A stretch of DNA of 64,000 nt from Castanea sativa (taxonomy: Eukaryota; Streptophyta; Magnoliopsida; Fagales; Fagaceae): contig NC_134024.1 in assembly GCF_040712315.1 (NCBI RefSeq), forward strand, positions 29,069,158 to 29,133,157, given 5' to 3'. The translations under genes and the position numbers were made by a program. Shown in pieces: positions 2,308 to 44,170 of this stretch. Position 1 is the first letter of the stretch. Each line of letters starts with the position of its first letter. The notes under the pieces are model-generated. The model was not told where the DNA came from. It saw only the letters and a program-made list of their open reading frames with translations, and did no database searches.

Positions 2308-3153
2308 TGTTAGGTTTTAGGGGTAAACTGGATTGTTTAACCTAATAATTAACCGAGTGAATATTTAGATTTATTTTTCAAATCTAGGTTAAAACAAAAC
2401 AATCATATCATGTAAAACAGTGGAAAAGTAAATAACTCAACGATATGATGACCTAGGAAAACCAAACCGGTAAAAAACTTAGGGAGGATTTAACCTAGCT
2501 ATCCTCAAGGTAAAAAGCAAATCCACTAGAAAGAATTGAAGTTTACAAAAAGACTTAGAACACTAACATCCTATTGCTATAACATGTAGAACTTACTGAC
2601 ACGACAACGTGCAAGCTCCGAATCCACAGACTCCTTCTCTCTTTGGACTTTGCACCAACACAAACTCACTTGCTTGTGACTTTGAGACTCCACTCAAAGG
2701 TTTTGGATCTCCTTAGACATTGATCTTGTATGTAGCAACTTCTACAATACTGAATCTTGAGATTCTTTAAGGAATAATACCGATAGAAGACTTTAGAGAG
2801 TTTTCGATACAAAACCCTATATCTACAAAATAGGCACAAGATGCACTCTAATCTCTCGAAAAACTTTGAAAACCTTTTCTAGAGTTAGCTTATAATGTCC
2901 ATTAAATACTGGAAAAAACAGCTTGCGATTTGGGCTTCAAATTGTCAAGTTATGGGCTTTTTACGTTTATTGATTTTTTGCTGATATGAAACTTTCAATC
3001 GATCAAGTACCAATTGAAAGAAATAGATTGTAACTCATTTTTTTTCATCCTGAACTTGATTTTTTTGTCTTGGACTTGAAAGTACACTATTCTAAACCAA
3101 TGAGACTTACTTTTTTTCTTGGTTTACCAACATTACAAACTCAAAACTTAACA
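2308..3153 (-). repeat. 3' LTR of element 0
   Basis: It starts TGTTAGGTTTTAGG and ends AAAACTTAACA. Its partner is at 5861-6713, and they share TTGCACCAACACAA and AAACCCTA blocks. It contains TCGATCAAGTACCAAT, a motif that recurs in the interior of the same element at about 4147. Confidence 0.85.
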
Positions 3154-4145
3154 ATCTCCCCATTTGGCAATCCATGACAAAACACACATACAACATAATG
3201 CCCATATACAATAAAATGCCCAAATACATCACAAATCCCAATCTAAGGCTCCTAACCTAGAAGTTGCAAGAAGAGACAGAAGATCTTGATCAGAATATAC
3301 CTATCTTTCCTAAAACACTCAAAAGAACACAACAACGCATGTGTGGAAAGAAAGACATATAAACAATATGAAACACAATATAAAAATAAAAGTAAACTAA
3401 CTCTCCCCCTAAGTTAGTTTCATCAAAAACTTTTCTTGTCTCCCCTTTCAAAAGCAATTTCATCTCCCCCTAAACAAAACATTTTAAAAACATTTTCCAA
3501 ATTTCATATATTTCTCCCCCTTTTTGTCACGTATTGACAAAGACAACCCAATCAAAGAGTAAACAGAAAACATATGTAACAAAGGATAAGAGGAAATAGA
3601 GAATCAAGGAAACAATTCCCCCTATGGTCGACATAGGTTTTAAAAACATCTTTCTCCCCCTATAAAAATAGGAAAACAAGACATGTTTTGGGAAAAATTT
3701 AGGATGTGGGAATAACTAAAAACACACATAAGTTGATGATACACTTGAAGAAAAAAAATAATTCTCTCTTTCAAAATATGCAAACTTGACACTATCTAAC
3801 CTATAAACAGTTACATGAGTAGAGAAAATATTTGCACATTATTATCCATCATATCTTTTTTTTTTTTTTTTTTTTTATAATTATTCTCAATTTTCAGCAG
3901 TTCATGCATCAAAAATAGCATATACTAAACTGTACAAAACTCAAAAATTAATCAATCAATTTTTAAATCAAGTTGAGTACCCAATTGAGCAAAGTGTATG
4001 CGTGTTGTGTGAAAACAATGAAAGATATGATTGCAAAAATGCAAGATGGATACTAAAAACAATGCGATGCATGTGAATTCTAAACACAAATGATGCATGA
4101 AAAGACAGATTGGTCAAAAACTTAAAAACTGAAAAATTTTCAGTT

Positions 4146-4260
4146 TCGATCGATCAAGTATTAATCAAGAATCAATCGAATTAGACAGAGAGTTTTACTG
4201 TAAAACCTGAACATTTTCGATCGGTTGAATATATGATTCGATCGGTCGAGACTTGGAAAA
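4146..4260 (-). promoter_or_regulatory. Internal GATCGATC motif cluster of element 0
   Basis: About 115 bp hold TTTCGATCGATCAAGTA, AATCAATCGAAT, TTTCGATCGGTTGAA and GATTCGATCGGTCGAG. The same core TCGATCAAGTA occurs in the element's own LTR (about 2998-3010). The role is inferred from equivalent clusters in elements 1-4, where they sit upstream of an apparent internal promoter. In element 0 the downstream ORF is gone. Confidence 0.45.
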
Positions 4261-4634
4261 CTTGAATATTTTGAAAACCTAAAATTGTTTTGCAGAAACA
4301 CTTTTCAAAACAGGATTTCATGAAATGAATTGCATGTGAATGATTTCAGATGTTTTCAAAAACCCATTGTCTTCAAACATCACAAATGGTATAATCTTGG
4401 ATGGCCACGCTAGTTTACACACAATCTCATGTACAAGATTTAGCAAAGACTTACTTGTGATGTGTGTTCAACTAGTAAGAGCACGAGATACATATAAGGT
4501 GATATGTAGATAGTAATCAATCAAATTTCTACATCATCCATCACAAATGTTTGAAAGTGACTATCACCTAAAGTGTTACATCCCATAACTCCCACAAACT
4601 CTCACATCTCCTAGAAAACAAGCTTGCAATAATG

Positions 4635-4636
<2 letters not shown>

Positions 4637-4688: not shown

Positions 4689-4691
<3 letters not shown>

Positions 4692-5850: not shown

Positions 5851-5860
5851 TAATACCACT

Positions 5861-6713
5861 TGTTTGGTTTTAGATCCTTGTAAACTAGATTTTTTAACTT
5901 AATTAATTACCCAAGTGAATACTTAGGTTTATTATTCAAATCTAGGTTAAAACAAAGCAATCATATCATGCAAAACAGCGGAAAAGTAAATAATACAACG
6001 ATATAATGACCCAACAAAACCAAATCGGTAAAAAACCTAGAGAGGATTTAACCTAAATATTCTCAAGATAAAAAGAAAATCCACTAGAAAGAATTGAAGT
6101 TTACAATAAGACTTAGACCACTAACATCCTATTGCTACCACATGTAGAACTTACTGACACGATCACGTGCAAGCTCCAAATCCATAAATTCCTTCTCTTT
6201 TTGGACTTTGCACCAACACAAGCTCACCTACTTATGACTTTGAGACTCCACTCAAAGGTTTTCATTCTCCTTAGACGTTGATCTTGTTTGCAACAACTTC
6301 TACAACACCGGATCTTGAGATTCTTTAAGGAATGACGCCGGTAAAAGACTTTAGAGAGCTTTTGGGTACAAAACCCTAGATCTACAAAAGTGGCACAAGA
6401 TGCACTCTAATCTCTCTAAAAAACTCTAAAAACCCTCTCTAGGGTTAGCTTATAATGTCCTTTAAATGTAGGAAAAAACAACTTGCGATTTGGGCTTCAA
6501 TTGGTCAAGTTATGGGCTTTTTACATTTGCTAATTTTTTGCTGATGTGCGACTTTCGACCTATTGAGTACCAATCGAACGAAACAAATTATAACTCTTTT
6601 TTTTTCATCCCGAACTTGAGTTTTTTGTCTTGGACTTGAAAGAACACTATTCTAAACTAGTGAGACTTACTTTTTGTCATGGTTTGCCAACATTACAAAC
6701 TCAAAACCCAATT
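5861..6713 (-). repeat. 5' LTR of element 0
   Basis: It starts TGTTTGGTTTTAGATCC and is next to the primer-site complement. It aligns along its length with 2308-3153. Its last three bases are ATT instead of ACA, but the GATTT target duplication follows at the expected position. Confidence 0.82.
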
Positions 6714-15613: not shown

Positions 15614-16677
15614 TGTAAAGTTGTGATTTACAACTATTTTTGTGTTGACTTTAATTCTGTACCAAATTTGATTGTAATTTTGTTCAATCTTTTGTACCCT
15701 GTATTTTATGTGGGATTTATTTGTAAGGGTTGTGTGTAAGGGAGAGTATGTGAAGACTCAAGGCATATTTTGAAGACAAAAGGAGTTTTCGCGGGTAGCT
15801 CGCAACTAACCATCCCGAGAAGTGAGGCATGTGCTCATTACATGATTGGAATGCGAAAAGTCATGACAGATGGTTTTCGCGAGTGTCTCGTGGGTAAGGT
15901 CTTTTCGCAAGATACCCGCGAAACAGTCTGTTTTGCTATTTTGTCCTATCTGCTCACTGCATCCTCATACACACTATATATACCATCATTACCCACATAT
16001 TGAGTAGAGAGTTTTTCAGAAGAGAAAACCCTAACCTCAAACCCTTGAAAGTGTGAGATTGTCATACCCACAATTCTCTACACCATCCATTGTGGTTTTC
16101 CTCTATTCCTACCTCTCCATTTCCAAATCCTTGAGAGGTTGATAGCCCAAACACTTACTACACCCATACTGAGTGTCCAGTGAGGTTTTGGTGTTGCTGG
16201 GAAGCATTGGAAGAAGCCAAGCTTTGGCGGATGCAATCGGGCGCATTGCGGGATCCAGAAAGCTAAACAAGACATAGTTCTGAGAAGCCTTGTTGGAGTA
16301 GGAGCTTGGAGGGCTTAGGTGCACTGGGTAGACTAGGCTTGGAGGGTCTTTTGCTATTCGTGTATCCCAACTTATTGTTTAGTGGATCGATTTACCACTT
16401 GGATGGTGACGGAGAGGTTTTCGCCGAGTTCTTCGGTTTCCTCTTCGATAACACATCAGAGTGTTATCTTGTGTTTGCATCTCTCTTCCCTACTACTTTA
16501 GCTTTCATTTTACTGCTGTGTTTTAATGAATATGGCTTAGAGTAGTTGTTTTATTTGTCTGCTTGCATTTACTCTATTCCGTACTTAGTTTAAGTTAGAG
16601 TAAAATCAACCGAGCTGTAATTTTTTTATTTGGGGTCGAATCAGCTTTTGTGTTTTTAACATAAATCTGAGTTTTCA
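15614..16677 (+). repeat. 5' LTR of element 1
   Basis: It starts TGTAAAGTTGTGATTTAC and ends CTGAGTTTTCA. A cluster of CGCGA-type motifs (15788-15925) lies about 50 bp before a TATA box (CTATATATACC, 15974). Downstream of it comes an R-U5-like tract with TTATCTTGTGTTTGCATCTC. Its partner is 28286-29360. Confidence 0.9.
15788..15982 (+). promoter_or_regulatory. LTR promoter of element 1 with CGCGA motif cluster
   Basis: Motifs TTTTCGCGGGTAGCTCGCAA, TTTTCGCGAGTGTCTCG and TTTTCGCAAGATACCCGCGA lie within 140 bp, followed by a TATA box at 15974-15982. The same cores (TTTTCGCGAG, CCCGCGAAA) recur at 25444-25731 inside the element. The promoter role is inferred from the TATA position. Confidence 0.6.
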
Positions 16678-16693: not shown

Positions 16694-16745
16694 TTTCACT
16701 TGCTATGGTTTCATTACCTAAGTACGATCCAAGACCCCTTTTGTA

Positions 16746-18696
16746 ATGGATCAGTCACAATCTCTCAATGCTCCACCATACTTTGATGGGAGCAACTACG
16801 CTTTTTGGAAAGTCCGTATGAAGGCATTTCTTTGTTTTATAGATGAGTCTGTATGGGATTCCGTTGAGAATGAGTATGTTAGACCCACAACAGCCAAGTC
16901 CGAATGGGACAAGGCAGTACTTGCTTTGGCAAATGCCAATAGCAAAGCAATTAACGCTATCTTTTTTGGTGTGTCTACTGATGAATTTCATAGGATATCA
17001 CATGTGAAGACCGCCAAGGGAGCTTGGATAATTCTTGAGACTACCTACGAAGGTACCAAGAAAGTCAAGGACACAAAACTCCAAATGCTTACCACTCGAT
17101 TTGAAGAGCTTAAGATGAGTGACAATGAGTCATTTGATTCATTTTATGGGAAGCTCAACGAAATCGTGATTTCCAAGCTCAATCTCGGTGAAAAGATTAA
17201 GGATGCTAAGGTGGTGAGAAAGATTTAGAGGTCCTTACCGGAAAGCTACCACACGAAGGTTACTGCTAAAGAAGAAAGCAAAGATTTGGATGAGATTAAG
17301 ATTCAAGAGCTAATTGGATTTCTCCAAATATATGAACTTGGACTGCCTTCTCACAAGCCAAGCAAATCACGTGCACTCAAAACCATCAATGAGAGAATGT
17401 ATGACACTTTCGAAGAAGATGATGTGGAGAAAGAAGTAGCATTCCTTGCAAAGAACTTCCAAAAATTTCTGAAGATGAAGAATAGTGGGAAGTCCTTTAG
17501 CAAAGGAAAGTTCTCATCATCCAAAGGTGGTAGAAAGGAGTTTAAGAAGAAAGATAGGAAGGACTTTCAATCCCCTCAAGGAGTTGTGTGCTTTGAATGC
17601 AATGACCATGGACACATCAAGAAAGAATGTCCCAACTACTTGAGAGGGAAGGGTAAGGTGTTTGCCACTACTCTTAGCGACTCTAAAAGCTCAAATTCAG
17701 ACACGGAAGAAGAGTGTGACAATGATGGGAACTATAGGGCCTTTATGACAATTACCTCTGTTAAATCTAAGGATGATTTGAGCAATTTGGTCAATGAATG
17801 TGGTGAGCATTCCAAGGGTGAGGAAGTTGAAAAATCGGAAGATGAAGATGTATGCCAAAATGAAGGTGAGAACAACCTTCAAGAAGCATATGATTCTTTG
17901 CTAAAAGATTGTGGAAAATATGCCAAGGTTGCAAACCATGTTGTGAGAAAGATGAAGAAGATTGAAGAAGAGCATAAGTGTACTCTTGTGCAACTTAAAG
18001 AGACAAAATGTGAAGCAGAAAGACTCAAGGGAGAGCTGATTGAAGCCTACTCTAAGATCAAGTTTCTAGAGCTTGAAATAATCCAAGCTAATGTCAAGGT
18101 TGAGCGTATCTCCACCAAGAAACTTGACAGTGTGTTATCCTCACAGAAATCCTCACATGACAGACCGGTTTGGGTTATACTAGAGAAGGAAGTTCCAGCA
18201 GTGAACCTAAGAAGGAAGTGAGGTTCGTATCAGCCAAGAGTATTAAGAAACTTAAAGAAGTGATAACTAAGACTGAGACCCCTATTGCTGAGAAGAGAAC
18301 CATTGGTGTAAAACCACAGGATAAAGGGAAGTCATCATCCAAGAATCAGAGTGGGCCTCAAATGAAGCATGTGTGTCATCATTGTGGAGTTCAAGGGCAC
18401 ATAAGACCTAATTTTTCAAGCTTCATGCACTCAAGAAAGCTGATTCCATGCATAACCAAGAAAGTTCAAAGAAGAAACCAAAGAGAACACAATCTAAGGG
18501 AGAAAATGAAGGACATCTCATTGCAGACGTCATGGAAATGCTGAAGAACATCTCTCTATGCCTTGCTAGCTTGACTCTGAGGCTGGAAAGCTATGTTGGT
18601 CGTGCATCTCCATCCAAGGCTCTCACCCAAAACACTCGAAAAGTGTGGGTGAAGAAGGGTACCCATGCATGTTTATTTCCTATGCTCATGCTTTAA
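16746..18696 (+). pseudogene. gag of element 1 (Copia capsid/nucleocapsid), broken
   Basis: The start is ATG at 16746 (MDQSQSLNAPPYFDGSNYAF), the usual opening of Copia gag. The capsid region includes LETTYEGTKKVKDTKLQML and FDSFYGKLNEIV (UBN2-type gag). A first zinc knuckle CFECNDHGHIKKEC is at 17589-17630. An acidic coiled-coil stretch follows, then a second knuckle CHHCGVQGHIRPN whose last Cys is lost. An in-frame TAG at 17226-17228 replaces the Leu found in element 3 (KILQSL). Frame changes occur near 18165 and 18413. The frame ends soon after KVWVKKGTHA, with nothing of pol behind it. Capsids, if once made, would have packaged RNA in the cytoplasm. Confidence 0.88.
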
Positions 18697-20387: not shown

Positions 20388-21107
20388 ATCTCCCCCTTTG
20401 GCAATCCGTGACAAAACCACAACAAACAAATGAACATATGAGAGAAGTCATAAATCACTCAACTTATACTCACTTGTTGAATACAATAAAATCTATCCTA
20501 ACATAAACTCTTGAAAAAATTTTGCAAGAAGAGAGTTCTTGACAAGTAGACTTTAACAACTTGTATTTCTGAAACACTTAAACAAAACTCATTAAGGCAT
20601 CTTGTGTGAAACAGAAATAAAAGATTGCATACAAATAAAGAAACATGTGTATAAAGAGAGAATAGAAACAACACATGTAGAGGTAGGTGAAGAAAATATA
20701 CATCATCACATATGTATCAAAGATAAGAACAATGTATGTAAACATGGTCACAAGACCTAGGATACAAGAATAAGAAGCTAAAAGTTGCTCCTACAACAAC
20801 AAGGAGATAAGCACTCCCCCTAACAAGATGAAACAGATCTCCCCCTTGCAAAGGAATGTATTTCTCCCCCTAACTTGTAGAATCTTAAAGAAAGAAACCA
20901 CAAATTTTCCAATTTCTCCCCCTTTTTGTCACGATTGATAGAGGATACAGGAAGTTATAAAGCTTTACCCGAGAAACATAAAGATGATCAAGAATGAACA
21001 AGGGGGCACAAAGAACCCATAAAGATGCATGAATGTAATGAAACAAGATGCTATGGATGACAAGATAAGAGAAACATGCAAAACATGTGAAGAACAATGC
21101 ATGCAGA

Positions 21108-25050: not shown

Positions 25051-25055
25051 AAGCC

Positions 25056-26581: not shown

Positions 26582-27607
26582 ATGTCTCCCACCAAGCATG
26601 CTGCTTTCAAGAAATCCTCCAAGCGTGCTCGCACGGATTCTGACAACTTCAAATCTGTTGAGGCAGATATGGCTTACAATGATTTTTTCAAGAGCGGAAC
26701 AATCATCATGGAGAGAGTTGTCCAATTGGATACCCTTGAAGACACTTTCATTCCCGATGTATTCAAGGAGAGGACATGGACGAAGCTGTAAACTCCGTGT
26801 GGAAATGTGTAATTGAAAATCATTAAAGAATTCTTTTCCAATGCTAGTGTGGACGGAGACCACATTAACTATTGGGTGAGACCCAAGGAATTTGTGATTA
26901 CAAGAGATTCAATTCAAGATTTTCTTGAAGTTCGTCCTCCTTCACAGCCAATTACCGTGCAATACAGTGATCGTTTGGAATCCATTGAGGAAATGGTAAA
27001 AATTCTTGGTGGTACACCAACTAAGAGGTCTATGAACACAATTCCATTCAGTCTGGAAATGAGGGCTCTTGCTTATGTGATGATCCACAATTTATATCCA
27101 GTAACCAACTTGACAACATTGTCCGTTGTAAGGACAATCTTCTTGTACGATCTCTTCACTCACAAAGAGATTGATATTTGTTGACACATCTTCCACCTTT
27201 TGACCAAAAGTATTGAAAAGCGGAACTCCAGATCAATCATGCTATTTCCCTCTCTTATTATAGGTCTCATTACAAAGGCAAAGCTCAAACTTCCGAGCGG
27301 TCTCAATATTGTGCATAGAGATTACCCCATTGGTGCACACACAATGACTCCAAGCAGAGCTCACATTAAAGGATCAAAGATCGGCACTTCTAAAATTCCA
27401 AAGGCTGCTGTTCAAGAAGAAGGTGGAGACACGGACGATGAAATTGACAGATTCACCTCTGCTCCAAAGAGCTCTACACAGTCATCTTCCCAAGCACAAC
27501 CACAAGGATCCGATCGTCTTGATCGCCTTCTTACAATGGTAGATCAGATATATGGGATGCTCGAGTCTCATGTGCAGCACACCGCGGATCAATTTGCTTA
27601 CATCTAG
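26582..27607 (+). pseudogene. Second ORF of element 1, PF20167-like 'putative plant transposon protein'
   Basis: A frame of about 342 codons from ATG 26582 (MSPTKHAAFKKSSKRART). It runs through MERVVQLDTLEDTFIPDVF, IKEFFSNASVDGDHINYWVR, PFSLEMRALAYVMIHNLYP and DLFTHKEIDIC to a Ser/Gln-rich tail and a final helix with LLTMVDQIYGMLESHVQ. This resembles the domain Pfam calls Transposase_32 / putative plant transposon protein. That name is recalled and was not searched. The start is basic and the tail acidic/low-complexity. Three in-frame stops (26789, near 26831, 27182) break it, with no frameshift. Homologues are in element 3 (34033-33094) and element 4 (about 41930-40713). The biochemical role is unknown; it shows no reverse transcriptase or integrase motif. 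Confidence 0.75.
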
Positions 27608-28285: not shown

Positions 28286-29360
28286 TGTAAAGTTGTGATT
28301 TACAACTATTTTTGTGTTGGCTTTAATTCTGTGCCAAATTTGATTATAATTTTGTTCAATCTTTTGTACCCTATATTTTATGTGGGATTTATTTGTAAGG
28401 GTTATGTGTGAGAGAGAGAGTGTGAAGACTCAAGGCATCTTTTGAAGACAAAAGGATTTTTCACGGGTAGCTCGCAACTAGCCATCCCGTGAAGTGAGGC
28501 ATGTGCCCAACACATGACTAGAATTCGAAGAGTCAAGACAGATGGTGACAGCTGGTTTTCTCGAGTGTCTCGCGGGTAAGGCCTTCCTATGAGATACCCG
28601 CGAAACAATCTGTTTTGCTATTTTATCCTATCTGCTCCACTACATCCTCATACACACTATATATACCATCATTACCCGCATATTGAGTAGAGAGTTTTTC
28701 AGAAGAGAAAACCCTAGCCTTAAACCCTTGAGAGTGTGAGATTGTCATACCCACAATTCTCTACACCATCCATTGTGGTTTTCCTCTACTCTTGCCTCTC
28801 CATTTCCAAATCCTTGAGAGGTTGATAGTCTAAACACTTACCACACCCATACTGAGTGTCCAGTGAGGTTTTGGTGCTGCTGGGAAGCATTGGGAGAAGC
28901 CAAGATTTGGCGGATGCAATCGGGCGCATTGCGGGATCTAGAAAGCTAGACAAGACATGGTTCCGAGAAGCCTTGTTGGAGTAGGAGCTTGGTGGGATTA
29001 GGTGCACTGGGTAGACTAGGCTTGGAGGGTCTTTTGCTATTCGTATATCCCAACTTATTATCTAGTGAATTGATTTACCGCTTGGAGGGCGGCGGAGAGG
29101 TTTTTCTCCGAGTTCTTCGATTTCCTCTTCGATAACACATCAGAGTGTTATCTTGTGTTTGCATCTCTCTTCCCTACTCTTTTAGCTTTCATTTTATTGC
29201 TATGTTTTAATGAATATGGCTTAGAGTAGTTGTTTTGTTTGTCTGCTCGCATTTACTCCATTCCGCACTTAGTTTAAGTAAGAGTAAAATCAAGCGAGCC
29301 GTAATTTTTTATTTGGGGTCTAATCAGCTCTTGTGTTTTTAACACAAATCCGAGCTTTCA
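28286..29360 (+). repeat. 3' LTR of element 1
   Basis: It starts TGTAAAGTTGTGATTTAC and ends CCGAGCTTTCA, and matches 15614-16677 with scattered substitutions and small indels. The CGCGA cluster and TATATATACC box are both kept. Confidence 0.9.
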
Positions 29361-31075: not shown

Positions 31076-32178
31076 TAAATGACCAAAAAGTGTGAAAAAC
31101 ACCTTAGAACGTTTAGACTCCCAATTTACAAATTACCAACACAAGCTTATTATCAAACAATGTATGTGTAGAATATGAAAATAAGCTAAATCAGGATTGG
31201 TAAAACGATCTAAACCAAAATTAATCACAACCACAGAAGCAATTAAAAGGTAAAGATTAAGGGAAGAGAGATGCAAACACAAAGACAACACAACGATGTG
31301 TTATCGAAGAGGAAACCGAAGTCCTCGGCATAAAACCTCTCCGCCGCCCTCCAAGCGGTCAATAATCCACTAGAGAATGAAGTTGGGATACATGAATAGC
31401 AGAAGACCCTCCAAGCCTAATCTACCCAGTGTAGCTAAGCCCTCCAAGGTTCTTGCTCCAACGAGGTTACACCGAACCTTTGTCTTCTTTAACTTACCAG
31501 ATTCCGCTATAGCTCATAGCATCAACCAATATCAATTGGTCCCTTCCTAACTGCTTCCCAAGCACCAAATAACCTTCTCACGGATATGGGTATGGTGAGA
31601 AAATAATTTGGCTAAAATGTACCTCTCAAGGATTTAACAATGGAGAGGGTGAGAGTAGAGGAATTTGGAGAATCAAATGGTGAAGATTGTGGATGAGTCA
31701 ATCTTGTTTTTCTCTAGGGTTTCTCTCTCAAAATTCTCTTTGGAAGCTCTCTACAATACGTGGGTATAAGGGGTATTTATACTGGTGTGTGTTTGGAATG
31801 CCAAAGGTCATTTTTAGTCAAATAGGGCATTCAAGCGACTCGAGCTCTCGACTGGAACGAGTCACGAGTTTGAGTCGTGAGCTAACTGCTTGGCCAGCCG
31901 GAGGTTTTGTCTTGTAGTGCGACAGCTGGCATGACCCTTCAGCTCCCCCTGCGTGCTTCACACGTGTGCCATTTTGGCGACTCACTAGTTGCGAGCCAAT
32001 CATAAGGTCCAGTCGCGAGCCCCTGCTTGATTGCACACTCTTGAGCTTTTCTTCACACTCTCTCACACACTAACCTTACATGATTCCCACCTAAATAAAA
32101 GGGTTTCTAAATGCTGAATTACAAGCAAATTGGCACAGAATAAAGGCAACAAAATGATTGAATAAATTTAATCTTACA
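31076..32178 (-). repeat. 3' LTR of element 3
   Basis: It begins TAAATGACCAAAAAGTG (its TG has mutated to TA) and ends TTTAATCTTACA. Its partner is 37691-38768. It contains GACTCGAGCTCTCGACTGG, GAGTCGTGAGC and CAGTCGCGAGCC motifs (31833-32030), upstream on the minus strand of a TATAAATACC box (about 31771-31781). Confidence 0.88.
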
Positions 32179-33093: not shown

Positions 33094-34033
33094 CTACAAC
33101 TCAGGGGCGAGAGGAGATGCAGTATCGGTATGCACAGGTGTTGCTGAGCCATGACCAGATGGATTAGCAAAATGGAAAGATTCACTCTTAGGTGCTTCAG
33201 AGGAGTGACTCTTACTTGCTTGAAGAGATATCATCGATAATGGTCGAAGACATGTTAGCATTTTTCCATTAGTTGGTGGACGAACACCTTCAAGAACCAT
33301 GATCTTCATGATTAGACTACAGAAAGGTAGGCATGTTCTTGCTGCTGTACGAGCTGCTGTTTTCCTTATTAACTGGAAGATGTGGGCAGAGATGTCAATT
33401 TGAACTCTGGTGATGAGATCACATAGAAATTGTGTTCTTCCAAGGTTGATGAATGCAATGTTTGAGAATGGATAGAGGTTGAAGAACATGATCAATTTAA
33501 GAGTCATCAGATCAAGTCCAAACTTTGTTGTTCCAATGGACGTGCCTTTGGATGAAATCTCAATTTGGCCCAAGAATTTGAAGAATATCTTGAACCTTAG
33601 GAAGTTTATCATCATATGGAGTGAGGTCTACATTTACCGGTCTATTGATTCGAAGAACCCTTGCAATGTAGTCTGGATTGATGTTGAACTCCTTTCCTCG
33701 TACCCAACACTGCAACTCAACGCCAGTGTATTTAGCGTTTGAATAAAACTCCTTAACCAATTCATCAATCAGGTCTTCAAAGTTCCCGAACAGGTTAGCC
33801 CAATCTTTTTCTTCAAAAATCCGAGGAATAAATGTTGTTCTCAAGGTATCAAATTTTACAACTCGCTCCACCATAGTGGGAGCATCTTCAAAAATGCTTG
33901 AGAAAGTCTGTGAATCGAGGGGAGTCCTGAATCTCTCACTATTTGAAACACTAGATGAACGTTGAGTCTGTTTTGCAAGAAATGATGAAACATCAATTAT
34001 AGGTTCTTTTCCTCGACATGAACGATGAGACAT
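33094..34033 (-). pseudogene. Second ORF of element 3, PF20167-like
   Basis: It starts at ATG 34033 (MSHRSCRGKEPIIDVSSF). It has MVERVVKFDTLRTTFIPRIF and LVKEFYSNAKYTGVELQCWV in the first frame (to 33560), then FFNLYPFSNIAFINLGRTQF and LITRVQIDISAHIFQLI in a second frame ending at 33094. Position by position these match the element 1 ORF (MERVVQLDTLEDTFIPDVF, IKEFFSNA, HNLYP, DLFTHKEIDIC). One frameshift near 33600 separates the halves. A Ser-rich tail with SHSSEAPKSESF follows. It lies between the spacer and the polypurine tract, as in element 1. Confidence 0.75.
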
Positions 34034-34734
34034 TTGCAAAAGAGCATACACACAGTAGAGAACCAAGTGCAAAACCACACACCACAAACATAAACTTGAT
34101 TAGATCCAAGTTAGTCCATGAAATGACCATCCATAGTTAAAAAAAAACTAAGTACTCAAACATGGTAAATGAACCAAGTATGCAGTATTTAAGCATGTAT
34201 ATGCTCATGAGCAACACTAATGCGTGTGGTGTACAAATTGTGATGATTGTGCAGACTCAACAAATCACAATGTAATTTATGAAATCCACAAAAAGCTCCT
34301 AAAACAATTTTCTATAGGGATGACATGCACAACATAGCACAAAACTTGAAATACTATACAAAAAGGAGACACAAACATGAACACATGTATAACAAGCAGC
34401 AAAAAATCCAAGACAACACAACCCATTCACGCAATACTCGATAAAAATTATACCCAAACCATATTCGAATCATCATAGATATCAAAACTCAACAATAACC
34501 CAAAATCCAAGAAATCAAGTCTCTAAACATGAAATACTTAGAGAGAGTTAGAAAACTCATACCTTTTCTTGAAGATTGAAATTGAGATGATGAAGAAAAA
34601 TGGAGGTTTTTGATGGAGAAACACGGTGAGTTTGTGAGAGAGAAGAAAATGAACAGTCAAAAATTGTTTGAGGGAAAACTGAAAAGTTTTAAAAACTGTC
34701 CTAAAAGTGCAAATTACGCATTTTTTGCAACTGG

Positions 34735-35080
34735 ATTGAGTCGCGAACAAGTCGCCAAAATAAGCCGCCAAAAACCCTTGAGACAAAATTTTGAAAAAAT
34801 TTACTAAGTGTTTTTCATGGCTGGAAGTTCCACCCACGAGTAAGTCGCGACAGGAGTCGCCAAACCTTCTGAGTAAACTCCCAACTGAAGCCTCCACTCG
34901 CGAATAAGTCCCCAAACTGAGTTGCGTGATATTCAAAAACTTAGATTTTCAAAAAAATTTCTTAGTCTTTTTCGTGACTAGGACGTTGACCTGCCAAGGA
35001 GTCGCCAAAACCTTCTGAGTAAGCTCGCATCTGAGGCATGCGACTGGCTTGACCCTTGAGGCAAGTCGCCAAAACAGGGT
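34735..35080 (-). promoter_or_regulatory. Internal GTCGCGA motif cluster of element 3
   Basis: Repeats of AGTCGCGAACAAGTCGCC, AGTAAGTCGCGACAGGAGTC, CACTCGCGAATAAGTC, AGGAGTCGCCAAAA and GCATGCGACTGGCTTGACCC. The LTR of the same element carries CAGTCGCGAGCC and GGCTTGACCTTTCAG. On the minus strand the cluster lies upstream of a C/T-rich leader (34640-34570) and a donor-like AAAAGGTATGAG (about 34565), then the second ORF. Confidence 0.55.
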
Positions 35081-35751: not shown

Positions 35752-37622
35752 CTACACGACACTTGCGTTTGGGGTGAAGCTTGTCAAGCAGGTGGTGAAA
35801 ACATCAATCATCTTCATCACATCCCTCATTCCGGGATGACTTTCTTGACCTTTAGGTTGCTCAACAGTCCAATTTCCTTTGCCATGTCTTGGTCCTCTCC
35901 ACCTTCGACCACTTGAATTCTTCAATGCTTGGAGCTTATGACAATTTGGGCTGGTGTGTTTTAAAATTCCACAGTGATGGTAGAAATGTTGAGTTCTAGG
36001 ACCTCTTTGTGACTTTGGGAGAGATATCCCTTTACCTTTAGGTACGACCACTAATTGGTTAGGTGGCTTAGTCAAAAACCTTTGGTCAGTCACGTTTCAC
36101 TTCTTTTCTGGCTTCACCTTCTCAATAATAGAAGTTTCTACAACTTGTTCCTTAGCTTTCATGAATTTCATTTCCTTGGAGATATTAGCAACCAAACTAC
36201 TCTCTCTGGAGTATCCCAATCTGCTTTTGTCGGAAAAAGGTTTTTTGTGAGCAAGCATTTCTTCAAGCTTCTTGGAGGAGACTCGCTCTATTTTATCATT
36301 AGCTTGAACCACCTCAAGCTCAAGAAATTTTATCTTTGAGTAGGCTTCGGTCACTTAGTCTCCTTGTATCGAACTAAAAGACTCTTGTAGTCTTGCTCTG
36401 CTCTCTTCATTTTATTAATGGCTGCATTAGCCACTTTTGCATATTCGCCGATCTTCTCAAAGAGAGAGTTGGAGGTCTCTTGCAGTCCTTCAGCTCTTTC
36501 ATCTTTCTCATCATCGGATTCTTCTGCTATCCCCACCGACTCCAATTCAGTTTACTCACCAAGCTCTTTCACTAACACACTTAAATCATCCGAAGATTCC
36601 ACATGAGCAATGGTCATGAATGCAGAGAAGTTTCCCTCTCCATCACAGCTTTCATCTGAATCTAAATTAGAGGAGTCGGAATCACTAAGAGTGGTGGCAT
36701 ACACCTTGCCTTTCCCTCTTAAATAATTGGGACACTTTTTCTTGATATGTCCATGTCCATTGCATTTGAAGCATGTGATTCCTTGAAAGGATTGAAAATC
36801 CTTCCCATATTTCTTCTTAAATTCCTTTTTATCTTTTCCGGAACTTGGGAATTTTCTCTTCTCAGCAAATTTTCCATTCTTCTTGAATTTCAAGAACTTT
36901 CTAAAATTCTTTACAAGATATGCTACATCTTTCTCGACCTCATCCTCATCTGATGAGTCGTGAGTTTCCACCCTCTCATTGATTGTCTTTAGAGCAAGTG
37001 ATTTGCTCTTCTTTTGTGATGGCAATGACAGCTTGCAAGTTTGAAGTGAGCCAACTAACTATTGAACTTTGATATCATCAAAGTCCTTGCTCTCTTCAAT
37101 AGCTGTAACCTTCGCACGAAAGCTCTCCAGCAATGATTGAAGAATTTTCCTCACTATCTTTGAGTCCTCCGTCTTTTCACCCAAGTTGAACTTGCCAATA
37201 ATTACCTCATTCAGCTTGCCATAGAATGAGTCAAATGACTTGTTGTCACTCATTTTTAGCTCTTCAAATCGAGTGGTTAGCATCTGCAATTCGGTGTCCT
37301 TGACTTTCTTTGTTCCTTCATAGGTGGTCTCCAATATTTGCCATGCCTCCTTGGCAATTGTTATGTGAGAAATCCTGTGAAACTCATCTGGAGAAACACC
37401 ATAAAAAATAGCATTCAGTGCCTTGCTATTTGCATTGGCTGCCGCAAGTGCAGCCTTATCCCATGTGGATTTAGCGGCTTCCGACCTTGTCCATCCAACA
37501 TCTACAGCATCCCAAATAGTCTCATCAATTGAACATAAGAATGCCCTCATGCGAACTTTAAAAAAAGCATAGTTGCTTCCATCAAAATATGGTGGAGTAT
37601 TGAGGGATTGAGATCGATCCAT
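35752..37622 (-). pseudogene. gag of element 3, broken
   Basis: ATG 37622 (MDRSQSLNTPPYFDGSNYAF) opens a frame to 37059 that covers the capsid domain (LETTYEGTKKVKDTELQML, FDSFYGKLNEVI, ILQSLLESF). A second piece (37025-36552) has the knuckle CFKCNGHGHIKKKC and an acidic stretch. Two more pieces (36545-36351 and 36354-36097) carry the coiled coil. The last (36093-35752) has a damaged second knuckle, YHHCGILKHTSPNC, in which the first Cys has become Tyr. It shows close similarity to element 1 gag. Several frameshifts and stops are present. Confidence 0.87.
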
Positions 37623-37690
37623 CTCAAATAGGGTCAAGGATCACACTTAGGTAATTAAACCACAACAAGTGCACCCACTCTGATACCAAT

Positions 37691-38768
37691 TGAATGTTCA
37701 AAAAGTGTTAAAAACACCTTAGAACGTTTAGACCCCCAATTTACAAATGACCAACACAAGCTTATTATCAAACAATGTATGTGCGGAATATGAAAATAAG
37801 CTAAATCAGAATCGGTAAAATGATCTAAACCGAAATTAATCACAACCACAACAGCAATTAAAAGGTAAAGATTAAGGGAAGAGAGATGCAAACACAAAGA
37901 CAACACAGCGATGTGTTATCGAAGAGGAAACCGAAGTCCTTGGCGTAAAACCTCTCCGCCGCCCTCCAAGCGGTCAATAATCCACTAGAGAATGAAGTTG
38001 GGATACATGAACAGCAGAAGACCCTCCAAGCCTAATCTTCCTAGTGTACCTAAGCCCTCTAAGCTTCTTGCTTCAATGAGGTTACGCCGAACCTTTGTGT
38101 TCTCTAGCTTACCGGATTCCGCTATAGCCCATAGCATCAACTAATATCAATTGGTCCCTTCCTAACTGCTTGCCAAACACCAAATAACCTTCTCACAGAT
38201 ATGGGTATGGTGAGAAAAGGATTTGGCTAAAATGTACTTCTCAAGGATTTAACAATTGAGAGGGTAAGAGTAGAGGAATTTGGAGAATCAAAGAATGAAG
38301 ATTGTGGATGAGTAAATCTTGTTTTTCTCTAGGGTTTCTCTCTCAAAGTTCTCTCTGGAAGCTCTCTACAATACGTGGGTATAAGGGGTATTTATACTGG
38401 TGTGTGTTTGGAATGCGAAAGGTAATTTTTAGCCAAACAGGGCATTCTAGTGACTCGAGCTTGCGACTGGAACGAGTCATGAGCTAACTACTTGGCCAGC
38501 TGGAGGTTTTGTCCTATAGTGTGACAGGTGGCTTGACCTTTCAGCTCCCCCTTCATGCTTCACACGTGTGCCTTTTTGGCAACTTGCTAGTCGTGAGGTC
38601 CAGTCGCGAGCCCCTGCTTGAGTTCACACTCTTGAACTTTCTTCACACTCTCTCATATACTACCCTTACATGATTCCCACCTAAATACAAGGGTTTCTAA
38701 ATGTTGAATTACAAGCAAATTGGCATGGAATAAAGCCAACAAAATGATTGAATAAATTCAATCTTACA
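37691..38768 (-). repeat. 5' LTR of element 3
   Basis: It starts TGAATGTTCAAAAAGTG and ends TTCAATCTTACA. It aligns with 31076-32178, with small deletions in the motif region (38445-38620). Confidence 0.9.
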
Positions 38769-39235: not shown

Positions 39236-40265
39236 TGATAGGCCTAAAACGTATTGACCCCTTGCGATGGATTAAGTTGATTAATTAGCCAAGTTTATTA
39301 ATTAATTAAATTAACATAAAAACGCGTGGTAGCGCAAACAAATCACCAATAAACTAAAGGGTAGCGGAAAATAAATTGACACGATGATTTGTTTACTAAT
39401 AAGGAAAACCTACAAGGCAAAAACCCCATCGGGTGATTTTAAAGTCACCACTCCCGTGAATCCACTATTATCACAACAAGCGGTACAAGTAAAGGAATCC
39501 CAGTACCTTATACCAATCTACAGTTGAACCCTTACCCCAATACCCAATTGGACTTGTTTTGTAGTGACAATGTCTCCTTTTCAATGCACGGCTCCGAGTA
39601 CATGACTAAACAATTGCATGGATCTCAATATACGACTTCAGTCATCAACTTGAGAAAGATGTTGGCTGCAAAATTCTTTAGTTCATCCTCACAATGAAGA
39701 ACAAGAAGATGCTTGGTTACAAAACCCTATGGTGCAAGGACAAAGCAGCTTCTTCACAAAGAGATGAACTAAGGCAAACTTTGTCTCCAGTCACAAATTG
39801 CTTGAGCAGACTTTGCTCAATGCTTGTGCAACTTGTGTCTACTTTGACGGCCCTTAAAATAATCCTTTTATATGTCTAGGGTTATGAGAAAAGAAGGCCC
39901 AAAGATATATCCACGGATTAGAATCAAAACAGATCTGAAACACTGTTTTTCTTAAACCTCGACAGCTAGAGGTGTCGAGATGCTGTCAAGCAGTTGTCAA
40001 GCCTCGGGGCTGAAACAGCTTCTTAAAGCTCGATAGATGTAGCTGTCAAGCCAGCTGTCGAGCTTTAACGATAGGCATTTCTTCAACTTGTTTCTTGGAC
40101 AAACTTGCATGGCTTTAACACTTTATCTTGAAACTTTTTTTCTTGACGTATTAAACCATCCTAGATCTACCCAAATACAAGTAAAGTGCATTTTGTCAAA
40201 GGATTAGCCAATTACATAAAAGAATGACATATGTTCTTAACAAGTGAACCACATATGTCCTAACA
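39236..40265 (-). repeat. 3' LTR of element 4
   Basis: It starts TGATAGGCCTAAAACG and ends ATATGTCCTAACA. It is related to the LTRs of element 2 (shared AAGTAAAGTGCATTTTGTCA, TGGTTACAAAACCCTA) but diverged at the outer end. It carries GTGTCGAG and CAGCTGTCGAG motifs (39955-40072), upstream on the minus strand of a TATAAAAGG box (about 39865-39873). Confidence 0.82.
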
Positions 40266-40712
40266 ATCTCCCCCTTTGGCAATCCGTGACAAAACCATAA
40301 CAAACAAATGAACATATGAGAGAAGTCATAAAACACTCAACTCATGCTTACTTGTTGAATACATCAAGACATCTCCGTGTGAAGCAGAAATAATAGATTC
40401 CATACAAATATAAGAATCATGTATATAAAGAGAGAAAAGAAACAACACATGTAGAGATAGGTGAATAAAACATATGTCATCATATATACCACTTTATAAG
40501 CATCATGTATGTAAAAATGGTCATAAGACCTAGGTACAAGAACAATGTATCTCTAACAAGAAAGAAAAGAAAAGATATATGTAATCCTTACTACATCCCT
40601 CAAAAACAAACTAACAAAAATCTCCTATGTCCTAACTCTCCCCCTAAGAATGACTACTCTCATATTCAAAACTACTCCTCTTTTTTGTCACGAGTGACAA
40701 AGGATAAGAGTG

Positions 40713-41930
40713 TCAAGTAGACATCTCGTCAGAATTGGAAGAGCTAGCATCTCCATCCTCATCATCATCATTGCCAGAACCATCATCAGGTGTCTCGAAT
40801 GCCTCAGGAGGAGGAGAAGGAGACTCCACAAAACCACCAAGGCGAGCTTGCCATCTAGCAATATGGCCAACAAGGGTGTTCACCTGATACAACTCTGTAG
40901 AAAGTGTATCAAGGCAAGCAGCCATGCGCTGAAGCTACACCATGATCGCATCCAAAGTCACACTTCCCGCTGAAGAAAAGGGAGTGGAGGTAGAAGGAGC
41001 CAAAGGAGTAGGAGAAGCTGCTGAACCGGACCACCTCGAATGAAACTACGCCTCACTCCGTTAAATGGTAGCGTAGTCAATGGCACACATGACAGAGACG
41101 TGGTCAAAAGAGGGAAAAGGAACAAAAAAATGGCGTAAGATCCGCGTGACAACAGAAGGAAAGATGAGCTTATCACGGGTCGCCGTATCCCTATACACGT
41201 CGATGATAGAATTGATGAAGTGTGAAGGAAAATCTATAGAAAGATCCTCAAGAAGGGACAATTGAAAATGAGAATGAGACTCTGTAATGGAGTTGTAATG
41301 AGAGAGAGGATACAACACAAAAGTCATCACCATGTTCAAGAATCTAGGACCTTTAGCAAAAGGTCGACATGATGTAAACTGACGTCCACCCCAATCAGCT
41401 GGGTGCTCACAAAAAGCAGAGATCATCTCATCTTTAGACACAGTCTATAGACACTCACAACTGGGGTAGTCAGGATGCACAACCCTCGAAACATGAAGCA
41501 TATCGGATACTAACTCCTATGTGACTACAATGTGCGTACCTCGATGCGAGTATGAAAGAGAGGTACTGAAGTATCAGTTCTATGCGTGTTGGAGTAGAAC
41601 TCCTGAATTAGCACAGAAGGATATGTGACCGAGACGTCACACATTTACTTCTATTCCCGTTTGTGAATGACATCAGGAAGGTCAGTGTCGACGAAATCTG
41701 ACAAAACAACTTGGTGTTTCGAATGAACAACTCATTTAGAGAAGTTCTCTAAGAAGTCCTTTTGGGTTTTTCATCACGGAACTGAACAAAAGAAGGAGTA
41801 GGATCAGAAGACAATGAGGCCCTAGAACGAAAAGGGTTCTGGGATGGAGCAGACTTACGTTTTGGGGCTATTGACGCACTAACGTAAACTAGAGAGAGAG
41901 GGGGAAGAAAGAAACACTCAGAAAAGTACC
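40713..41930 (-). pseudogene. Second ORF of element 4, PF20167-like, diverged
   Basis: Minus-strand pieces in order: APKRKSAPSQNPFRSR (about 41880), LIQEFYSNTHRTD (about 41600), RFLNMVMTFVLYPLSHYNSI and VYRDTATRDKLIFPSVVTRI (41441-41061), and a C-terminal helix CLDTLSTELYQVNTLVGHIA with an acidic Ser/Asp tail (40925-40713). The layout (basic start, (I/V)xEF(Y/F)SN motif, LYP motif, acidic tail with a terminal helix) parallels the ORFs of elements 1 and 3. Sequence identity is lower, so this is a different subfamily. Several stops break it, and the start codon is not clear. Confidence 0.6.
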
Positions 41931-42404
41931 AACACAGGTCAACTATAGCAAGTATATTGAAAGGAAAGAACGTATGCATGAACATGTAACCTGCAATATA
42001 AAAGACCTCATGGGCTCAGCCCAATCCAATCCTACCAGCACACAATCAAATTGCACACATCTAAATGCATGATAATACAGTTATAATGCTCATGGAATGC
42101 AATGTATGAGATTGAAAACTCATTTAGGTAAAATCCCATCCCAAAAATTTTACAAAACTCAACAATTTTGAAAAACCCCAAAATTTTTAGAAACTCAAAA
42201 CCTAGGTATGAATGCATGAAAATATCATGAGGAAGGAGAGAGAGAGATCATACCAAGTGATTTGAATCAAGAGAGGCCGAAAATCACGTGGGTTGAAGGT
42301 TTTGAGAGAGAAGAGAGTGTTTGGGAGTTGAATAGGCCCGGAAAGATCGAGAGAGAACGAGAAAATGAAATCCAGATCGCGTGAGAACCTATATATAGAA
42401 CCTC

Positions 42405-42755
42405 AGTCAATCTCGACAGATCAAGGTGTCGAGAGGTATCTAGACAGGTGTCGAGGTAGGTGTTGAAAATACAGGCGTCGACAGATGCAGCTGTCGAGGA
42501 GGTGTCGAGGAACAAAATATCAGACACACAAAAGAAGCTTGATCGATCCACAAGGAGTCGATAAGCTATCGAGAGGTCAGGAGGTTTCTCGATCGATCCA
42601 CAAGCTGTTGAGAAGCTATTGAGAGGTCAGGAGGTTTCTCGATCGATCCACCAACTATTGAGAGGTGTCGAGATTGCGATAAGATACAACAGATGAGCTC
42701 GACAGATAAGCCAGGTATCGAGAGGTGTCAAGAAGGTATCGAGAAGGCTTAAAAA
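42405..42755 (-). promoter_or_regulatory. Internal TCGAG motif cluster and TATA box of element 4
   Basis: Around 20 copies of GTCGAG, TATCGAG or TCGATCGATCC occur in 350 bp (for example CAGCTGTCGAGGAGGTGTCG). On the minus strand a TATA box (CTATATATAG, 42389-42398) follows about 15 bp later. Then come a C/T-rich leader and a donor-like CTTGGTATGAT (about 42255) ahead of the second ORF. CAGCTGTCGAG also occurs in this element's LTR. Confidence 0.6.
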
Positions 42756-43892
42756 TAGTTTTTCAAAGGAGGAGAAACACATAGATATGAATGCAATCAA
42801 ACATGCAACTCAGCCAATGATCCAACCAATATTTTAACCTTTCAAAATCATCTTTCACTCAACAAAAAGTTAAGAAATTAGCTCCAAAAACTCACACACA
42901 CACACACACACTAAACAAGTCTAACCAATTTTATATTTCAAAAACAAGTTAAGATAGTTTAGTGAGCATACATCAATACATGTAAACCTTGTGATGGCCA
43001 AATCACATTGTACCTACACATGTATCAAAAGTAGCAAAGAATATTGCGTGTTGTGTGTGAAAAACATTGCAAGATTACATAAGTGTCTCAATGTTATGAT
43101 GATTTAAGATATGAGAAAATCACTTTAACTCACACATAATCATAACTGTTTGATGGAGACTATCACCTTCAAGGTACATCCTATAACTCCCACATCTCTT
43201 AGAAAACACACTTGCAATCATGTTTTAAAGCATTTTTTTTTTCTTTTTGCTTTTATTTTCTTTGCATATTTTTTCTTTTAATTAAGAAAATTATGCATGG
43301 GTATATAAAAGAGAGAAAAGAAATATCCAATTATGTTAAGCTTTTTGACATTGCACTTTTGCTTTGCCGAAACACACAGATGTCAATGACATTGCACTTT
43401 TGTTATGCCGAAGCATACAGATGTCATATCATGATTGGCGGGTAACAGTGGTGAGATGGTTATTTATGCCTTTTTCTTAAGATTTTCTAGTCCTTCCCGT
43501 CAAAAAGAGTGATATGAGTGTTAAGTACAAGAGATCACTTGACCTTACTCATCACAAACAAAGAGCCACAAAGCTCACTTGCTTAGTTGTGCATAGAGAT
43601 GCTCATCTAAGTTACAAGAGATACAAAGTTTAGAAAACTCTGTTTCAATGGCCATTTTAAGGTTCACAAGAACCGATGTACACAAACACACATTGTTTTT
43701 GTATTTTTCTGAATTTTTCAATTTTCTTTTATTTTTATAAAACAAAATAACTAAAACTGAAAAACTAACAACCAAAAACATGTAAAAAAAAAATAAAGCA
43801 ATGCATAAAACTAGACTAACTCAAAACATTAAAGCAAAACACACAAGTAATGCAAAACTAAAAAAAATGGAAAGAGAGAAAAAGTGATTAAA

Positions 43893-44170
43893 TCACTTGG
43901 AACCTTTTTCCTTCCACACCTTGGAAGAACCTTTCCTTTTCGCTAACCTTTGAACCGGCGATGAGGGGGAAGAATTGACACCATTCAAGTTCATAAGGAA
44001 CATAAGGGTTTTGAGAAGATCTTCGAGAGGAGCAAACGAGGACGGAAACTGATTCTGGTATTCTGACGCCAACATGCTGTTGCTATTTTGAGTGGCTAAC
44101 CACTTATAGCAATTTAGTCTAGTAGGACCAACTACTCCACAGTGATGACAAATTGCATGGAACTCAAATT
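43893..44170 (-). pseudogene. gag C-terminal fragment of element 4
   Basis: A minus-strand frame holds the knuckle CHHCGVVGPTRLNC (the His of CCHC is replaced: GPT where other copies have GHI), then LLKTLMFLMNLNGVNSSPSS and a basic end. Everything N-terminal to the knuckle is lost at the junction with the tandem array. Confidence 0.65.

What the first reader, a model, noticed from the sequence alone, without database searches (positions are those of the whole stretch)
2308..44170. Matched motif clusters at the LTR promoter and at an internal site, with a different motif in each subfamily
Five pol-less elements each carry a cluster of short CG-containing motifs in the LTR upstream of a TATA box, and a second cluster of the same motif in the spacer. 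Element 0: TCGATCAAGTA at about 2998 and 4150. Element 1: TTTTCGCGAG/CCCGCGAAA at 15788-15925 and 25444-25731. Element 2: GTCGAGAAGCTATCGAG at about 20126 and 21130. Element 3: GTCGCGA at 31833-32030 and 34735-35080. Element 4: CAGCTGTCGAG at 39955-40072 and 42405-42755. The motif changes between subfamilies but agrees within an element, which looks like coevolution with something that binds both sites. A candidate is the element's own second ORF product, in the manner of the VANC anti-silencing proteins of VANDAL transposons, which bind short motifs repeated in their own element. That analogy is inference.
Basis: partly seen in the sequence, partly recalled or inferred. Interest (0 to 1): 0.87.

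Follow-up and report, generated by a model that had tools for sequence, protein, structure and literature searches.

The report
Twin promoter arrays in plant retrotransposons
Plant retrotransposons here carry the same short palindromic DNA motif in front of their main promoter and in front of an extra gene inside the element, a layout first described in 2010 that probably lets one DNA-binding protein control both, although which protein does so is not shown.

Summary
The motif clusters are real, at the stated coordinates and above chance. They form three motif classes rather than five motifs: E1/E3 (TCGCGA), E2/E4 (TGTCGA/TATCGA) and E0 (TCGATCGA, weak). ORF2 matches lie in E1, E3 and E4 only. 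Among sampled genome copies, 35 of 35 labelled pre-ORF2 arrays match the class of their ORF2 clade (10 of 45 unlabelled), and 23 of 24 labelled LTR-internal pairs agree. The internal array is not copied LTR: own alignments are at most 27 bp in 22 of 23 elements.

The layout is in print: Bousios 2010 reported such motifs in Sirevirus LTRs and upstream of ENV. New here: pol-less elements, a PF20167 gene in that position, other cores, a candidate promoter, leader and intron, and the same gene family with a private palindromic array beside Mutator-like transposase.

The coevolution claim is weakened. One group carries a swapped ORF2, yet LTR and upstream region keep the old backbone type. Most likely one trans-acting factor serves both promoters; whether it is ORF2 or a host protein is open.

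The parts
15614..16677 (+). E1 5' LTR (partner 28286-29360, 91% identical)
   Evidence: self-BLAST
15787..15925 (+). E1 U3 array, class A (TTTTCGCGAG/CCCGCGAAA); TATA-like TATATATA at 15975-15982
16722..18218 (+). E1 gag, in more than one frame
25443..25731 (+). E1 internal array, class A, upstream of ORF2
25742..25884 (+). E1 candidate internal promoter and CT-rich leader (TTTTATAGGG at 25742, TTTTTAAAA at 25767)
   Evidence: inferred from sequence
25885..26581 (+). E1 candidate 5' UTR intron (AAG|GTATGT ... TTTATGCAG|ATG)
   Evidence: inferred from sequence
26582..27604 (+). E1 ORF2, PF20167-type, in broken frames (matched part 26633-27310)
28286..29360 (+). E1 3' LTR; U3 labelled class A (2 words)
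19381..20388 (-). E2 3' LTR; class C array about 20073-20150
21130..21310 (-). E2 internal array, class C; no ORF2 match downstream of it
22831..23964 (-). E2 gag
24009..25051 (-). E2 5' LTR; class C array about 24720-24815
31078..32178 (-). E3 3' LTR; U3 array 31833-32030, labelled class A (2 words)
33097..34033 (-). E3 ORF2, PF20167-type, in two frames
34034..34562 (-). E3 candidate 5' UTR intron (donor AAG|GTATGA; reads TGCAA at the acceptor in this copy)
   Evidence: inferred from sequence
34735..35080 (-). E3 internal array, class A (GTCGCGA/GTCGCCAAA)
35755..37640 (-). E3 gag, in several frames
37693..38768 (-). E3 5' LTR (its U3 gets no class label: one class A word)
39300..40266 (-). 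E4 3' LTR (inner end counted from the PPT junction in the alignment, outer end approximate); U3 array 39955-40072, class C
41064..41662 (-). E4 ORF2, PF20167-type (matched part)
42390..42397 (-). E4 TATA box (TATATATA) just downstream of the internal array; candidate splice donor GT at 42253
   Evidence: inferred from sequence
42405..42755 (-). E4 internal array, class C
2307..3147 (-). E0 3' LTR; a single weak motif near 2999
4146..4250 (-). E0 internal cluster, class B (CGACCGATCGAA, TTGATCGATCGAA)
5860..6707 (-). E0 5' LTR

Best explanation
These are pol-less, Sirevirus-like Copia elements and fragments of them. The two clusters are matched cis-regulatory arrays for two promoters: the LTR promoter, which makes the genomic RNA, and an internal promoter that drives the second ORF (PF20167) through a leader with a 5' UTR intron. 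The arrays are made of dyad-symmetric CG motifs, so the likely reader is a dimeric DNA-binding protein that uses the same sites at both places, giving joint control of the two transcripts. Shown: same class in both arrays, excess of inverted repeats, position before ORF2, no long copy of LTR in the spacer. Suggested by sequence only: TATA box, leader and intron. Inferred: promoter activity and a shared binding protein.
For: CG-containing k-mers are shared between the two arrays of an element above chance. In the genome sample 1 of 10000 partner permutations reach the own mean for CG 7-mers, 597 of 10000 for non-CG 7-mers (41 elements). CG-hexamer profile similarity: own 0.411, same ORF2 group 0.370, other class 0.070; 0 of 5000 permutations (23 of 41 elements used). 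Motif label vs ORF2 clade: internal 25 of 25 labelled (10 of 35 unlabelled); U3 21 of 22 labelled (13 of 35 unlabelled, not located, or left out by the filter); internal-U3 pairs 17 of 18. With the rules frozen, 10 new loci gave internal 10 of 10, U3 6 of 6 located (4 not located), pairs 6 of 6. Control windows: 0 of 32 labelled. Inverted repeats: 84 vs shuffle mean 25.8, maximum 42 (internal); 112 vs 28.4, maximum 48 (U3) (23 elements). Array, CT-rich leader and a GTATG/GTAAG-type donor recur in that order in three separately aligned groups, with a TATA-like box between in many but not all rows (output partly cut). An acceptor joined to ATG is seen in E1 and in 4 of 8 ERTW loci.
Against: A crude regular-expression test of TATA, donor and acceptor in 32 loci did not clearly beat shuffles (TATA before donor 11 vs mean 6.1, maximum 12; acceptor with ATG 8 vs mean 6.4, maximum 13; all three 4 vs mean 1.4, maximum 4), so the promoter reading rests on alignments of related copies. 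No expression, methylation or binding data were at hand. Ten of 35 sampled internal regions carry no label. The class words were chosen after seeing the first data; only one search is out of sample. The loci were not a random sample: ranks 1 and 4-22 by PF20167 score, then 28 picked by me from the list, mostly frames without stops. One element (L041) pairs a class B internal array with a class C LTR. Within an ORF2 group the own partner is not clearly the best (320 of 5000).
Confidence: 0.7

Rival explanations
1. The ORF2 product itself binds the arrays at both promoters and activates or de-silences its own element, as VANC does for VANDALs or Tas for foamy viruses.
For: Motif class follows ORF2 clade in 35 of 35 labelled internal arrays. 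Of 204 ORF2 homologs 83 matched a start pattern and 56 of these have a basic, NLS-like stretch after it. The model of one homolog ends in a long helix, residues 320-360. E1-E3 ORF2 pieces differ more than gag pieces. PF20167 genes beside Mutator-like transposase have their own dyad array.
Against: In DWN-S (5 loci) an E3-type ORF2 is joined at about -250 to E1-type upstream sequence and the LTR stays E1-type. OPIE-2, PREM-2, Osr8 and Tnd-1 have LTR motifs without an ENV gene (PMC2829016 Table 3), and E2 keeps both arrays without an ORF2 match. No DNA-binding fold recognised, in a low-confidence model. Co-inheritance alone would give the class-level correlation.
Confidence: 0.4
2. Host transcription factors read both arrays; lineages switched from one host factor family to another, and ORF2 is only a passenger gene.
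For: LTR and upstream region keep the backbone type when ORF2 is swapped. Elements without an ENV gene keep LTR motifs. Bousios et al. recovered mainly stress-factor sites when they compared their motifs with PLACE.
Against: It does not by itself explain why three classes follow the ORF2 clades with no internal exception among 35 labelled arrays, or why PF20167 genes beside Mutator-like transposase have a further private array.
Confidence: 0.4
3. The arrays are palindromic because the structure itself matters (hairpins, siRNA origin, recombination, or RNA packaging), not because of a binding protein.
For: Inverted repeats are three to four times shuffled expectation. A paper on palindromes in maize Sirevirus LTRs and siRNAs is recalled only; it was not among the 15 of 27 papers listed.
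Against: Structure alone would not need the same letters at both places; class-specific letters are shared although arms and spacing vary.
Confidence: 0.15
4. The internal array is a recent partial duplication or conversion tract of the LTR.
For: The longest own alignment is 35 bp at 91% in one element (L039).
Against: In the other 22 of 23 elements there is no alignment (1) or one of 9-27 bp, on either strand.
Confidence: 0.03

Closest known systems
Sirevirus repeated motifs (RM) in LTRs and upstream of ENV (Bousios et al. 2010, PMC2829016; abstract, passages, sections 9 and 20 read)
   Same: Palindromic CG-containing motif arrays in the LTR upstream of the TATA box; further copies of the same motif upstream of the 3' gene; the motif differs between elements; an internal promoter was proposed there.
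   Different: Here the window elements show no pol, the gene is PF20167, cores are TCGCGA or TCGA-based rather than CGG-CCG, and a candidate TATA, leader and intron are visible. The published table gives one consensus per element; here classes follow gene clades.
VANC anti-silencing system of VANDAL transposons (PMC5735166 passages; PMC10398659 outline and abstract)
   Same: Short motifs repeated in non-coding parts of the element that differ between related families; an element-encoded accessory protein; PF20167 genes also lie beside Mutator-like transposase here.
   Different: VANC has DUF1985/DUF287; ORF2 has PF20167 and no DUF1985 hit. Binding is shown for VANC, untested here.
Foamy virus Tas, internal promoter and LTR (PMC3798896 passages)
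   Same: Two promoters of one retroelement, one internal and in front of the accessory gene, both described with response elements for one factor.
   Different: An animal retrovirus, unrelated; Tas is a known transactivator, ORF2 is not.
Maize Grande gene23 (PMC7264820 passages, incl. a reference title)
   Same: Accessory gene between pol and 3' LTR, nuclear product, own promoter.
   Different: Antisense to gag-pol; no matched LTR array is described in the passages read.

Membership tests
Sirevirus (Copia) | reverse transcriptase phylogeny | not testable with these tools
   No pol was identified in the window elements. Three related loci (L010, L016, L021) have a Copia-like RNase H stretch upstream, identified by recall only: Pfam and NCBIfam named nothing for the L016 stretch
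Sirevirus (Copia) | Copia-type gag | tested here: met
   PF14223 at 2.9e-21 (E3) and 1.5e-12 (E2); E1 by similarity to these
Sirevirus (Copia) | conserved 5' LTR junction/PBS | tested here: inconclusive
   TGGTATCAGAGTGG or close variants follow the 5' LTR in E0, E1, E2, E3; agreement with the published junction is recalled, not compared
Sirevirus (Copia) | multiple PPT copies upstream of the 3' LTR | tested here: met
   Several GGGGGAG copies before the E2 3' LTR and in L026 and L027; other elements not counted
Sirevirus (Copia) | palindromic motif array upstream of the LTR TATA box | tested here: met
   (weak in E0)
Sirevirus (Copia) | CGG-CCG core in the motif | tested here: not met
   Cores are TCGCGA, ATCGA, TGTCGA/TATCGA; Tnd-1 is a published exception with TCGA. 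So I call the elements Sirevirus-like, not certified members
VANC | DUF1985 domain | tested here: not met
   No hit in the ORF2 pieces scanned; one genome match below cut-off, itself a better match to the plant mobile domain. DUF287 was not searched in the genome
VANC | sequence-specific binding and hypomethylation of own element | not testable with these tools
   no binding or methylation data
PF20167 Transposase_32 | profile match above the curated cut-off of 45 bits | tested here: met
   150 scored genome copies, 73.1-100.6 bits; window pieces, which are fragments, 28.8-45 bits

The most novel reading that the evidence does not exclude
A portable control module, made of a PF20167 gene plus an upstream array of dyad CG motifs recognised by its product, is shared by Sirevirus-like Copia elements and Mutator-like DNA transposons in this genome. 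The so-called envelope gene position of Sireviruses would then hold a sequence-specific self-activator or anti-silencer that works on its own promoter and on the LTR, in the manner of foamy virus Tas or VANC. Motif classes would diverge with gene clades and insulate families from each other.
Probability: 0.33. Interest if true: 0.87.

Novelty: new variant of a known kind. Interest (0 to 1): 0.6.

Why it matters
It ties a published but unexplained Sirevirus feature to one gene family, gives candidate promoter and intron coordinates for the open question of how the 3' gene of such elements is expressed, and offers natural recombinants (the DWN-S group and L041) that can test whether the motif follows the gene or the backbone. 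The same gene family with another palindromic array beside Mutator-like transposase makes a shared anti-silencing or activation role testable.

Tried and rejected
Partial LTR duplication: rejected for the 23 elements compared.

Five distinct motifs: rejected in favour of three classes. ORF2 tree with class labels: the labels there were assigned from ORF2 groups, so it is circular and I rely. Regular-expression promoter test: inconclusive.

Structure: two AlphaFold2 models of low confidence (mean pLDDT 64.5 and 50.7). Only the first was searched: Foldseek gave no match at E<=0.001 and VIA-align showed only the terminal helix. ORF2 profile against the plant-mobile-domain protein L088: no similarity. 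NCBIfam named none of four proteins. Two PDB sequence searches gave nothing useful. A survey of pol-bearing copies was not possible because the genome search was busy.

Sampling and dropped rows: the 48 genome loci were ranks 1 and 4-22 of the PF20167 list and 28 picked by me from the rest (10, 8 usable, 10), mostly frames without stops. Dropped: 18 of 41 elements (listed there; six SRHW/other loci are among them); L041 left out of class B U3; L014, L028 and L063 left out of internal arrays; L049 and L050 unused (wrong and dummy coordinates).
Full report
Self-comparison gives LTR pairs for E0 (2307-3147/5860-6707, 87%), E1 (15614-16677/28286-29360, 91%), E2 (19381-20388/24009-25051, 89%) and E3 (31078-32178/37693-38768, 90%); E2 lies inside E1, and no 5' LTR of E4 was seen. 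U3 and internal clusters of E1-E4 share CG-containing 8-mers seven to sixteen times above shuffled expectation, with 0 of 300 shuffles reaching the observed value; E0 is weaker (13 of 300). The cross-table shows blocks, not five separate motifs: E1 with E3, E2 with E4, and E0 alone. Between E2 and E4 the U3 flanks align closely while the motif stretch does not.

WHAT THE ELEMENTS ARE. gag of E2 and E3 matches Copia gag PF14223, and pieces of the second ORF of E1, E3 and E4 match PF20167. PF20167-type matches in the window lie at 26633-27310, 33268-34033 and 41064-41662 only; gag matches lie within 16722-18576, 22831-23964 and 35755-37640. PBS-like and PPT sequences flank LTRs. E1 and E3 share sequence up to the foot of the internal array.

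GENOME TEST. The host genome is held (716 Mb in 13 contigs, unnamed; named ORF2 relatives are from Quercus suber and Lithocarpus litseifolius). The PF20167 first look found 3562 candidates, of which 150 were scored, all above the cut-off. I used flanks of 38 loci (mainly best-scoring ones and others of my choice, not a random sample) with E1, E3 and E4: 41 elements. CG 7-mer sharing between internal and LTR side: own 0.105, near relatives 0.1045, far relatives 0.070; 1 of 10000 partner permutations reach the own mean; non-CG 7-mers 597 of 10000; Mantel correlation with ORF2 distance -0.44 (0 of 2000 as low) for CG and -0.095 (40 of 2000) for non-CG. So the match is real but sits at the level of the group, not of the single element. 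With U3 located and a cluster present (23 of 41), profile similarity is 0.411 own, 0.370 same group, 0.392 same class but other group, 0.070 other class; permutations 0 of 5000 overall, 76 of 5000 within class, 320 of 5000 within ORF2 group.

Class words (A: TCGCGA, CCGCGA, GTCGCC; B: GATCGAA, AATCGAA, GATCGAT; C: TGTCGA, TATCGA; at least 2 hits and a unique maximum) were chosen after these data. On 35 elements of the retrotransposon clades, internal labels agree with the ORF2 clade in 25 of 25 labelled (10 unlabelled), U3 labels in 21 of 22 labelled, and internal with U3 in 17 of 18; control windows gave 0 labels in 32. With the rules frozen, 10 further loci gave 10 of 10 internal, 6 of 6 located U3 and 6 of 6 pairs; in 4 the U3 was not located. 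In the window the labels are A for E1 and E3, C for E2 and E4, and B for the E0 internal cluster; E0 U3 (both LTRs) and the E3 5' LTR stay unlabelled.

ANATOMY. In labelled loci the CG peaks of the internal arrays start mostly 1.0-1.5 kb upstream of the PF20167 domain. Inverted repeats exceed shuffles (84 vs 25.8 internal, 112 vs 28.4 U3, 23 elements), with units such as TTCGATCAATCGAA in class B. CpG observed/expected is 1.30 in the internal peaks, which were picked for CG, 0.66 in U3, and 0.18 in a region between array and ORF2. After the array come a TATA-like box, a CT-rich leader, a GTATG/GTAAG-type donor, an AT-rich stretch and an acceptor near the ORF2 start; this order is seen in E1 and E4, and in E3 with a changed acceptor. 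Group alignments of ERTW, EWESLC and GWLPL rows repeat array, leader and donor, and a TATA-like box in many but not all rows (output partly cut; DWN groups not aligned). A crude automated test of the order was not decisive. gag lies within 3 kb upstream of ORF2 in 8 of the 14 retrotransposon-type 7-kb loci (L027 weakly), and a Copia-like RNase H stretch in 3 of 14 (L010, L016, L021; identification recalled), so pol-less and apparently pol-bearing relatives share the unit.

NATURAL RECOMBINANTS. LTR family against ORF2 group among the 38 loci: ERTW copies have E1-type LTRs in 7 of 8 (1 no match), DWN-L E3-type 7 of 7, DWN-S E1-type 5 of 5, GWLPL E0-type 7 of 8, EWESLC E4-type 4 of 4; 6 SRHW/other loci match none. 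In all 5 DWN-S loci the switch from E1/L023-type to L012-type sequence falls at about -250 from the PF20167 domain, near the ORF2 start. In L016, L024 and L037 the E1-type match covers the internal array; in L028 and L035 it covers only the part downstream, and these two have no labelled array. By CG words DWN-S U3 arrays resemble ERTW more than DWN-L (0.618 vs 0.380 at six letters, 0.304 vs 0.174 at eight). Internal arrays do so weakly (0.542 vs 0.513, and 0.334 vs 0.241; ERTW against DWN-L itself gives 0.535 and 0.297), and the cross comparison of DWN-S internal with U3 gives no preference at eight letters (0.163 vs 0.170). So within class A the ORF2 was exchanged and the arrays did not follow. 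This is the strongest evidence against tight ORF2-motif coevolution, although both ORF2 types belong to a class with the same TCGCGA core. L041 has a class B internal array and ORF2 with a class C, E4-type LTR.

THE SAME GENE BESIDE MUTATOR-LIKE TRANSPOSASE. Five loci form a further PF20167 group (SRHW). In 3 of 5 a Mutator-like transposase stretch lies upstream on the same strand: L017 and L015 by PF10551 (L015 also a sub-cut-off PF03108 hit), L020 by similarity to these; none was found in the 3 kb held upstream of L013 and L019. All five have 4-12 copies of AACTCGAT in the 1.8 kb upstream of PF20167 (35 in all, 0 in the 36 other elements), several as AACTCGAT-N9-ATCGAGTT. Whether this array occurs elsewhere in those transposons was not tested. 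DUF1985, a VANC domain, gives one sub-threshold match in the genome search.

COMPARISON WITH PRINT. Bousios et al. 2010 (PMC2829016; abstract, passages, sections 9 and 20) describe palindromic repeated motifs in LTRs upstream of the TATA box in 13 Sireviruses, additional copies in the linker in the nine with ENV (77 of 79 linker copies upstream of ENV) and none in the linker of the four without, and propose an internal promoter that they could not conclusively identify. That is the kind of thing found here. The one search that named PF20167 listed 6 papers; I read passages of one, where the domain is reported in a sunflower Athila element (PMC11728184). The listings showed no link of PF20167 to these motifs; beyond those searches I cannot say. 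Foamy virus Tas (PMC3798896, passages) and VANC (PMC5735166, passages) are working analogies, not relatives.

VERDICT. A new variant of a known kind: matched promoter arrays in pol-less Sirevirus-like elements with a PF20167 gene. One shared trans-acting factor is the simplest mechanism; whether it is ORF2 is an even bet against a host factor.

Noticed in passing
L013, L015, L017, L019, L020 (about 0.8-2.0 kb upstream of PF20167): PF20167 genes, in 3 of 5 with a Mutator-like transposase upstream, carry a private dyad array AACTCGAT-N9-ATCGAGTT.
   Followed up: partly
L016, L024, L028, L035, L037: An E3-type ORF2 sits in an E1-type backbone with the breakpoint near the ORF2 start: an ORF2 swap found in five loci.
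   Followed up: partly
L041/L042: Class B ORF2 and internal array combined with an E4-type, class C LTR.
   Followed up: partly
L010, L016, L021: A Copia-like RNase H stretch (recalled identification) upstream of PF20167, so pol-bearing relatives seem to exist.
   Followed up: partly
window 1801-2401 and 9951-10601: Two further class B motif clusters; repeats at 2088-2289 and 10092-10294 are 85% identical in inverse orientation.
   Followed up: no
window 44150-44736: Tandem-like repeated stretch next to what looks like the E4 gag remnant.
   Followed up: no
G000:C11:8316185-8340043 (L001-L003): Three PF20167 frames of 444-469 aa without stops within 24 kb, the best-scoring of the 150 scored.
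   Followed up: no
L088 (G000:C5:29797198): The only DUF1985 match reported for the genome is below cut-off and matches the plant mobile domain better.
   Followed up: yes
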